Shown: positions 1,731-4,973 of the stretch, piece by piece
Numbering within the stretch: the stretch's first letter is position 1
Layout of the letters: each line of letters begins with the position of its first letter
NCBI RefSeq assembly: GCF_006517235.1
Contig: NZ_CP041188.1
Location: forward strand, 2,604,001-2,668,000
Length of the DNA: 64,000 bases
Origin: Pseudarthrobacter sp. NIBRBAC000502772
GTDB taxonomy: Bacteria > Actinomycetota > Actinomycetes > Actinomycetales > Micrococcaceae
Direction: 5' to 3'
The notes under the pieces: generated by a model
What the model was told of the DNA's origin: nothing
Seen by the model: only the letters and a program-made list of their open reading frames with translations
Database searches by the model: none
Program-made: the position numbers and the translations under genes

Positions 1731-1750
1731 CGCCAGCACGCAGGATTACG

Positions 1751-1788
1751 ACTAAGAACGGCCCGGCCGCGAGTTTCTTGGATTCTAG
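1751..1788. terminator. Left arm of a palindromic terminator split by IS30
   Basis: Bases 1751-1773 are the reverse complement of 4926-4948 with one mismatch, and the palindrome closes toward the middle with TTCTAG (1783-1788) against CTAGAA (4911-4916). Without the insertion this would be one long hairpin between the convergent phosphotransferase and acyl-CoA ligase genes, the expected place for a bidirectional terminator. The insertion sequence lies exactly between the arms. Confidence 0.75.
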
Positions 1789-1810
1789 GGGTCGTTGCAA
1801 CACCTGTTGG

Positions 1811-2264
1811 TTAGGTGGTTAGTAGTAAATCACGTAGACGCTCGGCTGGAGTATTCCAGCCGAGCGTTTTGCGTGGGCGTCCGTTGAGTTCCTGTGCGAC
1901 GTGTTCGAGGTCCTCAGGCCCGTAGACGGACAGGTCGGTGCCCTTGGGGAAGTACTGGCGCAGCAGCCCGTTGGTGTTCTCGTTCGAGCCGCGTTGCCAG
2001 GGACTGGCGGGATCGCAGAAATAGACGGGCATGTCGGTGGCAAGAGTGAAGGATTTGTGGGTGGCCATTTCCGCGCCCTGGTCCCAGGTCAGGGAGCCTC
2101 GCAGATGCTCCGGGAGGGTGGTCATGGTCTTGATGAGTCCGTCCCGGACAGTTTCGGCGGTGTGGTCATGTGGCAGGTGGACGAGCATCACATAGCGGGT
2201 GGTGCGTTCGACCAGGGTCGCGATCGCTGACTGGTTGTAGGCGCCGGTGATGAGGTCCCCTTCC
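1811..2264 (-). pseudogene. IS30-family transposase, C-terminal half (disrupted)
   Basis: Encodes the rest of the DDE integrase domain, beginning in this copy with [20 protein letters not shown] and continuing through TWDQGAEMA and [20 protein letters not shown] to [10 protein letters not shown]. The N-terminal part at 3720-4868 ends in PGHWE. Joining PGHWE to GDLITG restores the canonical family motif GHWEGDLI, whose Asp is the first catalytic acidic residue. The break lies between those codons, at the IS110 insertion. The apparent start at 2314 is IS110 sequence, not transposase. The rejoined protein would be about 530 residues. Confidence 0.88.
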
Positions 2265-2274
2265 TTACGGTGTT

Positions 2275-2465
2275 GTTGTGGGTGATTTCGGAGCTGTCGT
2301 AGTGTTTCGATCACCCTCGGGTGGTGGGTATGGCACAGATCTCCCTGCCGCTTGGACGGCTCACTGGGAATGGCCGCCCGCTGCCCGCCGATGACTCGAC
2401 CGCTGATTGAGACTTACGACATTGATCGTTGGGTAAGGACGTGCCGGCGTGGTTATCGACAGGGC
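2275..2465 (+). ncRNA. Candidate IS110 bridge RNA with target- and donor-binding loops
   Basis: The non-coding left end folds by eye into the known bridge-RNA layout. A 5' stem-loop forms from GGGTGAT (2280-2286) and ATCACCC (2310-2316). A target loop is closed by 2318-2324 with 2374-2380, and a donor loop by CGATGAC (2389-2395) with GTTATCG (2452-2458). In the target loop, CACTGGGAA (2362-2370) is the exact complement of the right target flank 3720-3728. In the donor loop, ATTGAGA (2406-2412) is identical to the element's right end 3713-3719, and GTAAGGA (2433-2439) is the complement of 2262-2268 across the left end. These are the guide positions and polarities expected for IS110. A left target guide (TCTCCCT, 2340-2346) is only partly matched. 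Confidence 0.78.
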
Positions 2466-2502
2466 CAACGGAAACTGGAGCCGATCGAAGGGACCGAAAG
2501 AC

Positions 2503-3705
2503 ATGACGGCATTTTGGGTAGGAATCGACGCGGGCAAAAGTGCGCATCATTGCGTCCTGATCGACCAGTCAGGGACGGTGCTGCTCTCGAAACGGGTCGA
2601 GAACGACGAAATCGTGCTGCTCGACCTCATAGCCACGATCGCGGAGATCGCGGCCGGTGCTGAGGTCTGCTGGGCCACGGATCTGAACGCCGGCGGCGCA
2701 GCCCTGTTGATTGAGTTGCTGGCCGCGCACGCGCAGCCTCTGATCTATATCCCCGGACGGATCGTGCATCACGCCGCAGCGACCTACCGAGGGGATGGCA
2801 AAACCGACGCGAAAGATGCCCGGATCATCGCGGACCAGGCACGCATGCGCACCGATCTCCAGCCCGTGCGCGATGCGGACCAGATCAGCACGGATCTGCG
2901 GCTGTTGACCGCCCACCGAACCGATCTGGTCTGTGACCGGGTCCGGGCGATCAACCGTCTCCGGGCCACCTTGCTGGAATACTTCCCTGCACTCGAGCGG
3001 GCGTTCGACTACTCCAAGAAGGCCCCCCTGATCCTTCTGGGCGGCTACCAGACCCCCGAGGCCATCCGACGGATAGGTCTGACCCGGCTCGCCGGCTGGC
3101 TCAGAAAACGCGGCGCCCGGAACAGCGCCAAGATGGCAGCGAAAGCCCTTGAGGCAGCGAACTCCCAGCACACGGTCCTGCCCACGCAATCCATGGGCTC
3201 GGCACTCGTCGTCCGCCTGGCCGAGCAGATCAGCGCCATCGATGCAGAGATCGCCGACGTCGATGCCCAGATCACGGACCTCTTCCGGCAGCATGAGAGC
3301 GCCGACGTTCTGCTGAGCATGCCGGGATTCGGCCCCATACTTGCAGCAACTTTCCTCGCGAACATCGGCGGCAACCTGGACGGCTTCGACTCCGTCGACC
3401 GGCTCGCCAGCGTCGCCGGCCTTGCGCCGGTCCCACGCGATTCCGGACGGATCAGCGGCAACCTGCACCGACCCCGGCGGTTCAACCGCAGACTCCTCCG
3501 AACCTGTTACCTCGCCGCCCTCTCCAGCCTGAAAAACAGTCCCGCATCCAGAACCTACTACGACCGGAAACGCGGGGAGGGAAAGTCACACAAACAGGCG
3601 CTCATCGCCCTGGCCCGACGCCGCATCAACGTCCTCTGGGCCATGCTCCGCGACCACGCCGTTTACCGAGAACCAGCCACCGTCAGCGGCGTCCAGGCTG
3701 CTTGA
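2503..3705 (+). CDS. IS110-family recombinase (DEDD transposase)
   Basis: 400-residue recombinase. The start at 2503 is chosen over 2449 because MTAFWVGIDAGKSAHHC matches the family N-terminus, GAAGGGA precedes it, and the upstream codons fall in the guide-RNA region. The N-terminal RuvC-like DEDD domain shows GIDAGK (first Asp), a second acidic residue around VCWATDLN, and DGKTDAKDARIIAD with the paired Asp. The C-terminal transposase_20 domain carries LLSMPGFGPILAATFLANIG and the catalytic serine region near GLAPVPRDSG. It is full length with no frameshift. It acts with the bridge RNA to join element ends to a guided target. Confidence 0.93.
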   Translation: MTAFWVGIDAGKSAHHCVLIDQSGTVLLSKRVENDEIVLLDLIATIAEIAAGAEVCWATDLNAGGAALLIELLAAHAQPLIYIPGRIVHHAAATYRGDGKTDAKDARIIADQARMRTDLQPVRDADQISTDLRLLTAHRTDLVCDRVRAINRLRATLLEYFPALERAFDYSKKAPLILLGGYQTPEAIRRIGLTRLAGWLRKRGARNSAKMAAKALEAANSQHTVLPTQSMGSALVVRLAEQISAIDAEIADVDAQITDLFRQHESADVLLSMPGFGPILAATFLANIGGNLDGFDSVDRLASVAGLAPVPRDSGRISGNLHRPRRFNRRLLRTCYLAALSSLKNSPASRTYYDRKRGEGKSHKQALIALARRRINVLWAMLRDHAVYREPATVSGVQAA

Positions 3706-3719
3706 CAACAGCATTGAGA

Positions 3720-4868
3720 TTCCCAGTGGCCTGGCACGGCGCGATCCTCGATCTCGGGCGGGCGCTCGGAAATCATGATCATCGGGTCCACGAACCTGGG
3801 CGTGCGTTGCTCGCCGGTGCGGTGGGGTTTGCGGCGGGTCCGGCCGGTGCGCAGCGCTGCCTGGATCTCGCGTTTGAGTCCGCCTCTGGCCTGGACATAC
3901 AGGGCTTGATAAATCGTCTCTGGGCTCACACGCATCTCCGGGTTGTCGGGGAACTCTTCGACCAGCGCGTGGCTGATCTGCTCCGGAGACCAGCGTAGGA
4001 GCAGCTTGTCCTTCACGTAGTCACGGAGGTCCGACTCGCCAGCGAGTTTGGCCGTCTTGGGCCGCGCCCGCCGGGCAGCGGCATTCCGATGCGCCCCGTG
4101 CGGCAGGTAGCCCATCCGGGGATCGGTATTTCGGCCCAGCTCGCGGCTGATAGTTGACGGCGAACGGCCCAGGGAGTGGGCGATCGACCTGACCGAGGAA
4201 CCGGCGGTCTGCAGGTCCCGGATCAGCTCCCGTTCCTGCACGGTCAGGAACCGCGGATCGATAGATTTCTCCAACGCTGATACCGGTACGGGGACCAGGG
4301 CCGTTACGGCGGGAGGGGTCATGGTGGTCACACCACGTTTGTAGTCGACGATTCGGCCATCCGGGTAAATGCGTCGGCCGCCGGACTTACGGATTCCCTG
4401 GTCCCACTCTTCGGCGGTCCGGAGATGTATCCCGACCGCTGCGGCAGCTTTCCGCCGACTCACGCCGGTCTTGCGCAGCCGGAAGTACTCATCCCGCCCT
4501 GGGTGAGGACCCACCCCCGTTTTGCCATAACTTTTCAGCCCGGCTTTACGGACCCAACCGGCACACGTTGCCGGATGCAGTCCCAACTCCCGTGCAGCCT
4601 GCGTGGTGCTCTTGACGCGGTCGAACACGACGAAGAACTGAGCCTTCTGTGCAGGCGTGTATTTCCTCTGGTCAGCCTTCCGATCCCGTGGGACCCGCTC
4701 GGCGAGCCGAGACTTATGGACCCACTGGTAGCACGTCATCTGCTTGAAGCCGAGCTCCGATGCGGCCGCGCTCACACTCCCACACCGATCCAACACCGAA
4801 AAGAACTGAGCCTTCTGCTCCGGCGTGTATTTCCTCCGGCCGGCAGCTTCTTTCGTTAAAGACAACAC
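3720..4868 (-). pseudogene. IS30-family transposase, N-terminal half (disrupted)
   Basis: Carries DNA-binding repeats (two related modules RKYTPEQKAQFF and RKYTPAQKAQFF), then the IS30 helix-turn-helix (LTVQERELIRDLQTAG, SVRSIAHSLGRSPSTISREL) and the start of the integrase domain, ending at PGHWE where the IS110 element is inserted. Beyond the junction the frame reads 18 foreign residues to a stop at 3663. The start is uncertain: GTG at 4868 is used; a TTG at 4904 lies inside the terminal repeat. The doubled N-terminal module makes this a long IS30 transposase. Confidence 0.85.
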
Positions 4869-4910
4869 GGTCGTTGCAACTCCCAAAAATTCTGGGTGTT
4901 GCAACGACCG

Positions 4911-4948
4911 CTAGAACCCGCCTTTCTCGCAGCCGGGCCGTTCTTAGT
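4911..4948. terminator. Right arm of the IS30-split palindromic terminator
   Basis: Partner of 1751-1788. Bases 4926-4948 are complementary to 1751-1773 with one mismatch. On this side the arm still lies just downstream of the acyl-CoA ligase stop, but it can no longer pair across 3.1 kb in a short transcript. Confidence 0.7.
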
Positions 4949-4973
4949 CTGCCCACCCGGTCCGGGTGGGCAG
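4949..4973. terminator. Hairpin after the acyl-CoA ligase gene
   Basis: CTGCCCACCCGG (4949-4960) is perfectly complementary to 4962-4973, only a few bases from the ligase stop at 4978. The tight GC-rich palindrome suits a transcription terminator for the minus-strand ligase transcript, and may now be the main one since the neighbouring hairpin was split by IS30. Confidence 0.6.

What the first reader, a model, noticed from the sequence alone, without database searches (positions are those of the whole stretch)
2265..3728. A readable IS110 bridge RNA whose guide matches the catalytic-motif codons of the IS30 transposase it interrupts
Seen: the element's non-coding left end contains CACTGGGAA (2362-2370), the exact complement of the right target flank 3720-3728, inside a stem-closed loop. 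A second loop contains ATTGAGA (2406-2412), identical to the right end 3713-3719, and GTAAGGA (2433-2439), complementary to 2262-2268. Known: IS110-group recombinases use a bridge RNA with target and donor loops in this order. Inference: CACTGGGAA encodes the His-Trp-Glu that precedes the first catalytic Asp in IS30 transposases (GHWEGD), so this element may specialise in invading IS30 genes through a conserved coding motif: one mobile element steering itself by RNA into the active-site codons of another.
Basis: partly seen in the sequence, partly recalled or inferred. Interest (0 to 1): 0.8.

Follow-up and report, generated by a model that had tools for sequence, protein, structure and literature searches.

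The report
RNA-guided element invading IS30 catalytic codons
A small mobile DNA element carries a predicted guide RNA whose two target stretches match the codons for the catalytic centre of a different transposon's enzyme, and its relatives in many bacteria sit at that same spot inside that transposon.

Summary
An IS110-group element (2264-3722; recombinase 2503-3705) splits an IS30 transposase between GHWE and GD. Its left end encodes a bridge-RNA scaffold with base-pair covariation. All 32 clade loci in hand (recombinase at least 67% identical) have at least one end on this motif; 24 match IS30 on both sides. The interrupted IS30s are diverse (16 groups at 80% identity among 20 without gross frame breaks) and only weakly correlated with the elements. 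The clade is one branch (29 rows, SH-aLRT 100) from nine actinobacterial families. Outside it, relatives with the same scaffold carry other guides that match other sites: 55 of 56 gave no IS30 match; the other sits at a second IS30 motif. The clade's 17-nt target consensus lies in IS30 genes at 27 of 30 genomic sites inspected. The mechanism is known (bridge RNA); a clade aimed at another transposon's catalytic codons was not found in the papers searched. No RNA or transposition was measured.

The parts
2264..3722 (+). IS110-group element, 1459 bp (equivalently 2262-3720; core TC at 2262-2263 and 3721-3722)
   Evidence: Junction comparison over relatives: the base before TC varies on the left and is fixed on the right within the clade; single full copy in own genome
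2503..3705 (+). IS110 recombinase, 400 aa
   Evidence: PF01548 E 3.5e-46 and PF02371 E 5.9e-19; PDB sequence matches ISCro4 and IS621 transposases
2318..2464 (+). predicted bridge RNA core: target-loop stem 2318-2334/2373-2387, donor-loop stem 2390-2403/2443-2457
   Evidence: alignments A1 and A2, covariation
2337..2346 (+). left target guide AGATCTCCCT (antisense to Gly-Asp-Leu codons)
   Evidence: resembles the left target AG[AG]TCNCC[CT]T of relatives
2362..2370 (+). right target guide CACTGGGAA (reads His-Trp-Glu)
   Evidence: exact complement of 3720-3728
2406..2412 (+). left donor guide ATTGAGA
   Evidence: identical to 3713-3719
2433..2439 (+). right donor guide GTAAGGA
   Evidence: complement of 2262-2268
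2253..2263 (.). left target half AGGTCCCCT plus core TC (Leu-Asp-Gly codons of IS30 read from the other strand)
3721..3728 (.). core TC plus right target half CCAGTG (Glu-Trp-His codons of IS30 read from the other strand)
3723..4901 (-). IS30 transposase, N-terminal part up to GHW
   Evidence: open frame to the junction; HTH_38, HTH_Tnp_1
1814..2263 (-). IS30 transposase, C-terminal part from E-GDL (D of GD presumed first catalytic Asp; role recalled)
   Evidence: open frame; rve E 1.3e-8
1790..4909 (.). whole IS30::IS110 composite between GGTCGTTGCAACACC inverted repeats
   Evidence: positions, sequence
3702..3707 (+). TTGACA, -35 half of a promoter-like pair formed when the ends abut; -10 half TACGGT at 2266-2271, spacing 17 across the junction
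   Evidence: TTGACA-17-TANNNT in 21 of the 25 clade rows given to (25 of 32 clade loci)

Best explanation
This is a member of a clade of IS110-group elements whose bridge RNA target loop is set to the nucleotides encoding G-H-W-E-G-D-L, one of the two most conserved stretches of IS30-family transposase genes, around the presumed first catalytic Asp. Shown by sequence: the element sits exactly there; guides resemble their targets; the RNA scaffold covaries; all held clade copies have an end on that motif, in diverse IS30s. Inferred from known IS110 biology: the excised circle makes a promoter at its joined ends, the recombinase-bridge RNA complex pairs with both strands of the IS30 codons, and strand exchange at the TC core inserts the element in one orientation without loss of target bases. 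Consequence, inferred: the IS30 gene is split, its ends stay intact, and precise excision would restore its frame. Aiming at protein-conserved codons would let one guide reach many IS30s across hosts while mostly sparing host genes.
For: Domains and PDB relatives ISCro4/IS621. Position: 32 of 32 distinct clade loci have a GHWEGD junction, 24 of 32 match IS30 on both sides, same orientation. Of 56 non-clade loci among the 80, 55 gave no tblastn match to the window's IS30 at E 1e-5. Clade: 29 rows one branch, SH-aLRT 100, quick tree. Interrupted IS30s: 22 C-halves, median identity 52%, 18 groups at 80%; without the two grossly frame-broken rows, 20 rows, 54%, 16 groups; L013/L014 have identical recombinases in IS30s 49% identical. 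Guides predict flanks across the family: right 86 of 126 positions vs 40.2 +/- 6.0 permuted (0 of 10,000 as high), left 157 of 198 vs 105.9 +/- 5.1 (0 of 2000). Covariation. Target specificity: consensus AGRTCNCCYTCCCARTG in 44 of 396 genomes; 27 of the 30 fetched sites are IS30. In 16 IS30 genes taken by profile, GHWEGD is the second most conserved separate region after NEN[AT]NG, just ahead of a third (0.783 vs 0.780).
Against: No RNA was measured; no Rfam match at gathering score; the window's RNA does not fold better than shuffles (z -0.77). The window's own left guide matches only 6 of 9 positions plus one G-U. Several members mismatch at the His third base (e.g. L003, L005, L013) and L011's right target departs further. 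L016, L022 and L069 have no IS30 match on the right; L025 has none by tblastn on either side. Element and IS30 relatedness correlate weakly: r 0.16, p 0.14 with all 22 rows, but r 0.26, p 0.034 without two frame-broken rows, so some composites may have spread together. Three of 30 pattern sites (L123, L136, L139) are not IS30. The own genome has a single IS30 and a single full copy of the element, so recent movement there is not seen.
Confidence: 0.89

Rival explanations
1. One old insertion: the element entered IS30 once and the IS30::IS110 composite spread as a unit.
For: Clade is monophyletic. A weak correlation of element and IS30 relatedness appears when two frame-broken rows are left out (r 0.26, p 0.034). 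L187 and L188, chromosome and second replicon of G819, share a 2768-bp identical composite, so joint spread happens locally.
Against: IS30 hosts are far more diverse than the elements (median identity 52-54% against 73%); identical elements L013/L014 sit in IS30s 49% identical; L001 and L007 share 89% of the recombinase but 57% of the IS30 half.
Confidence: 0.05
2. Protein-driven preference: the recombinase reads the motif itself and the RNA match is incidental.
For: All clade members share both recombinase and target.
Against: Across relatives with one scaffold, guide loops follow the flanks, beating every permutation tried; IS110 targeting by RNA is established for IS621 and ISEc21 (PMC11208160, PMC11187229).
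Confidence: 0.03
3. General preference of IS110 elements for mobile DNA, or ascertainment: IS30 is simply a common harmless landing place.
For: Known IS110/IS1111 members target REP and attC sites (PMC11187229, PMC11208160) and transposon ends (recalled).
Against: Insertion is at one position in all 24 two-sided cases; 55 of 56 relatives outside the clade gave no IS30 match (some of those loci are cut by contig ends).
Confidence: 0.03

Closest known systems
IS621 and the IS110-group bridge recombinases (Durrant 2024, PMC11208160; Hiraizumi 2024, PMC11208158)
   Same: DEDD/Transposase_20 recombinase, bridge RNA in the long left end, target then donor loop, guides to opposite strands including a core dinucleotide
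   Different: IS621 aims at REP repeats with core CT; here the core appears to be TC and the target is codons of another transposase's catalytic motif
ISEc21 seekRNA element (Siddiquee 2024, PMC11187229)
   Same: IS110-group guide from the upstream non-coding region, natural retargeting between relatives
   Different: in the passages I saw its target is not described as a coding catalytic motif
IS4321/IS5075 (target Tn21-type terminal repeats: recalled; IS4321's target logo is mentioned in PMC11187229)
   Same: same broad family, target is part of another transposon
   Different: hits terminal repeats, not transposase active-site codons (recalled)
attC-targeting elements ISKpn4, ISPst6 (PMC11187229, introduction read)
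   Same: specific to a repeated mobile-DNA feature
   Different: target is a recombination site, not a protein-coding motif

Membership tests
IS110 group (bridge RNA recombinases) | DEDD_Tnp_IS110 and Transposase_20 domains | tested here: met
IS110 group (bridge RNA recombinases) | long non-coding left end with bridge RNA, target loop then donor loop | tested here: met
   (prediction and covariation only; no RNA data)
IS110 group (bridge RNA recombinases) | guides match target and own ends on opposite strands around a shared core | tested here: met
   core TC inferred from junctions; opposite the core the left guide of the window has TG, not TC
IS110 group (bridge RNA recombinases) | circular intermediate with joined ends | not testable with these tools
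   only a promoter-like TTGACA-17-TANNNT at the virtual junction
IS110 group (bridge RNA recombinases) | catalytic Asp/Glu set and catalytic Ser | tested here: inconclusive
   KTDA.DAR and an SG pair align with ISCro4; residue roles recalled, not checked one by one
IS1111 group | bridge/seek RNA region downstream of tnp | tested here: not met
   scaffold and guides lie upstream of tnp
IS1111 group | subterminal inverted repeats | not tested
   not searched for
IS30 family (the interrupted gene) | IS30 transposase profile NF033563 on both halves | tested here: met
   G000 C-half 178.6 bits, N-half 101.1 bits, cut-off 80
Rfam RNA families | match above gathering score | tested here: not met
   0 matches in the window

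The most novel reading that the evidence does not exclude
A lineage of RNA-guided elements that lives by homing on the active-site codons of a whole family of rival transposons. Because protein conservation holds those codons fixed, targets cannot easily mutate away without losing activity, so one guide follows IS30 across hosts; and since IS110 excision is precise, each insertion acts as a reversible off-switch of IS30 transposition. Relatives (L049 at the NENTNG catalytic-Glu codons; others at Shine-Dalgarno/start codons) suggest that the family repeatedly reprograms its guides to functionally constrained sequence.
Probability: 0.45. Interest if true: 0.85.

Novelty: new variant of a known kind. 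Interest (0 to 1): 0.74.

Why it matters
It shows what looks like bridge-RNA targeting in nature solving a general problem: how to recognise a whole gene family by its unavoidable codons. It offers natural guides that live with synonymous variation (useful for bridge-recombinase design rules), a direct way to test how bridge RNAs are retargeted in evolution, and an example of one transposon splitting another at its active site.

Tried and rejected
Viral contigs: 0 relatives. Rfam: no family at gathering score. Single-sequence folding alone: uninformative; covariation was needed. A second example of the L049 type (IS30 NENTNG) by a left-junction pattern: 0 of 394 genomes, so L049 is one case with only 10 nt of right flank. 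Promoter scan of window 2200-3800: none; the joined-end junction has a promoter-like pair. Off-target test in the own genome: the guide-derived 17-mer with up to 3 mismatches gives 21 sites, 2 of them at 2 mismatches, none with an IS30 match; the only relative of this IS30 found there is the interrupted one. Sole descent of one IS30::IS110 composite considered and rejected, though a weak correlation remains. Literature: the listings showed no paper on IS110 insertion at IS30 catalytic codons. ISAar29 (an Arthrobacter-type name, recalled) occurs once in PMC11208160, with its target only in a figure that I could not see, so overlap with it is not excluded. The library is open-licence PMC only, no bioRxiv; ISfinder was not available.

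Rows dropped: one search's permutation sets were de-replicated to 18 (right) and 22 (left) elements with one clade representative each; loci without detectable junctions or guides were left out, and L047 (0 of 7) and probably L061 were misparsed but kept in, which lowers the score. Alignment A1 used 16 of the 23 clade left ends; A2 used 31 of the 48 sequences listed. In one search, 16 of 18 profile-found IS30 loci gave a usable frame and 3 of those 16 had no HWEGD match. L190 (G812) shows only the first 25 bases or so of an element at a contig end and is not among the 32.

Full report
What is there. Window 2264-3722 is a 1459-bp IS110-group element with a 400-aa recombinase at 2503-3705 (PF01548 3.5e-46, PF02371 5.9e-19; sequence relatives in the PDB are ISCro4 and IS621). 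It splits an IS30 transposase on the minus strand: N part 3723-4901 (HTH_38), C part 1814-2263 (rve); IS30 profile NF033563 scores 101.1 and 178.6 bits on the halves. Inverted repeats GGTCGTTGCAACACC frame the composite, 1790-4909. The own genome (one 4.8-Mb contig) has one full copy of the element (plus a 99-bp stretch 74% alike elsewhere) and one relative of this IS30.

Observation.

Relatives sit at the same place. A scan of one genome per species gave 126 relatives, of which the tool kept the best 80. tblastn with the two IS30 halves and inspection of junctions show that the 24 loci of the window element's clade (recombinase at least 67% identical) have a junction at the GHWEGD codons. Of the other 56, 55 gave no IS30 match at E 1e-5 and L049 lies at a different IS30 motif. 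With the window's own copy, two loci of the order search (L084, L088), two plasmid loci (L110, L111) and three of the genus search (L187-L189) there are 32 distinct clade loci: 24 match IS30 on both sides at the same position and orientation, 8 on one side (L004, L016, L022, L025, L052, L069, L072, L088). L025 is counted on its right junction sequence and an IS30-like translation read by eye; tblastn gave it no match. L016, L022 and L069 have no IS30 match to the right. Repeats of one locus were not counted twice (L083/L001, L085/L012, L086/L052, L087/L072, L186 and L191/L003, judged by coordinates, identity or contig length). In the genus search, 5 of 42 listed IS30 matches (19 of 81 genomes) carry the element, a sixth (G812) shows its first bases at a contig end; nine further loci that I read (L177-L185) are uninterrupted there.

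Independent insertions. The 22 interrupted IS30 C-halves compared have median identity 52% and fall into 18 groups at 80% and 15 at 70%; without the two grossly frame-shifted rows L010 and L018, 20 rows, median 54%, 16 and 13 groups. Element and IS30 relatedness correlate weakly: r 0.16, p 0.14 with all rows, r 0.26, p 0.034 without those two, r 0.23, p 0.065 without L005 too. Identical elements L013 and L014, in one species, sit in IS30s 49% identical. So insertion has happened many times, with some joint spread. The clade is one branch, 29 rows, SH-aLRT 100, from nine named families including Micrococcaceae, Nocardiaceae, Pseudonocardiaceae, Microbacteriaceae and Acidimicrobiaceae (quick tree).

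Guides. In the junctions printed the left target mostly reads AG[AG]TCNCC[CT]TC and the right one TCCCA[AG]TG (L011 TCCCAAAG; L007 and L015 depart on the left); the left guides mostly read AG[AG]TC[GT]CC[CT]T and the right guides [CT]ACTGGGA. At the guide position facing the third base of the Gly codon, all 23 left ends have T or G, the two RNA bases able to wobble, while targets there show all four bases; this is suggestive only, since the rows are related. The left guide spans the codon of the Asp that follows GHWEG, presumed to be the first catalytic Asp (role recalled). TC is taken as the core because the base before it varies on the left and is fixed on the right within the clade, and varies A/T on the element side among relatives.

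RNA-guided relation across the family. Relatives outside the clade keep the scaffold but carry other guides, and those guides match their own flanks. Right guides match 86 of 126 positions against 40.2 +/- 6.0 for permuted pairs (0 of 10,000 as high); left guides 157 of 198 against 105.9 +/- 5.1 (0 of 2000) (de-replicated sets of 18 and 22). By eye, 10 of the 27 relatives printed (L021, L026, L027, L029-L032, L034, L048, L053; four of them copies in one genome) sit between a Shine-Dalgarno-like stretch and an ATG or TTG.

Structure. In 16 clade sequences 18 of 50 pairs have two-sided changes against 7.4 in shuffles. In 31 sequences including relatives, 17 of 32 pairs against 9.1 and 91 compensated cells against 28.7, with 0 of 500 shuffles as high on both; sliding partners by 1-3 columns drops pairing from 97% to 25-55%. 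The outer stems of the target loop and of the donor loop both covary. The structure was derived from the same alignment, which favours it over the slid versions. Single-sequence stability is not unusual (z -0.77).

Why IS30. The 17-nt consensus AGRTCNCCYTCCCARTG occurs in 44 of 396 genomes drawn from the phylum; the reversed pattern was found in 2 of the rows; of 30 sites fetched, 27 have IS30 transposase matches at GHWEGDL (the other three, L123, L136 and L139, do not). In 16 IS30 genes taken by profile and not by the pattern, the most conserved 17-nt windows are NEN[AT]NG, then GHWEGD (best register 0.783; the guide's own register 0.767, rank 15 of 693; median 0.54), closely followed by VYVCDP (0.780). 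L049, a relative outside the clade, carries a guide for the NENTNG codons and lies there, though its contig ends 10 nt after the element; no second case was found in 394 genomes.

Mechanism. Shown: position, guides, scaffold, specificity. Inferred from published IS110 biology (PMC11208160: passages and sections 11-13 read; PMC11187229: passages, introduction and target section read; PMC11208158: two passages seen): a circle forms, its joined ends make a promoter (TTGACA-17-TANNNT in 21 of 25 rows; L007 and L011 have CTGACA, L017 and L022 were misparsed), and the bridge complex inserts at TC. The IS30 gene is split, but both frames stay open to the junction, so precise excision should restore it.

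Novelty. The kind is known. What I did not find in the listings searched (see Tried and rejected) is a clade devoted to the catalytic codons of another transposase family. PMC12500396 (four passages seen) names an IS110 and IS30 elements in one Kocuria genome but, in those passages, no insertion of one in the other. A figure in PMC11208160 shows the target of ISAar29, which I could not see, so prior depiction of one member cannot be excluded.

Noticed in passing
L012 2305-3688; L084 2710-4093: A second, distant IS110-family element (359 aa, about 30% identical) is inserted inside the right end of the IS30-targeting IS110 at the same point, TTGACAA|...|CTTCATTGAG, in two genomes: IS110 in IS110 in IS30.
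   Followed up: partly
L021, L026, L027, L029-L032, L034, L048, L053: Relatives with the same scaffold appear aimed at Shine-Dalgarno plus start codon and sit between them; the element's left end read backwards (GGTAAGGA) would resupply a ribosome-binding-like sequence (by eye).
   Followed up: partly
L049 2593-2748 and 4193-4202: An element outside the clade sits at the NENTNG catalytic-Glu codons of an IS30 gene with a matching guide; a search for a second case found none.
   Followed up: partly
L047, L064 left flanks: Left flank reads like the C-terminal end of another DDE transposase (LTLE..R*), hinting at a further transposase-end target (by eye).
   Followed up: no
window 1750-1767 and 4932-4949: The IS30 composite lies in the middle of a long inverted repeat (GACTAAGAACGGCCCGGC and GCCGGGCCGTTCTTAGTC), like a terminator; IS30's liking for palindromes is recalled.
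   Followed up: no
L187 177-2944 and L188: A 2768-bp identical IS30::IS110 composite on two replicons of one genome is framed by a longer inverted repeat (GACGGTCGAAAACTGAGCCAT), perhaps a further mobile element carrying it.
   Followed up: partly
L016 4225, L069 4209: The right end is followed by TTCCTTA-, resembling an element left end, so perhaps a tandem or rearranged junction.
   Followed up: no
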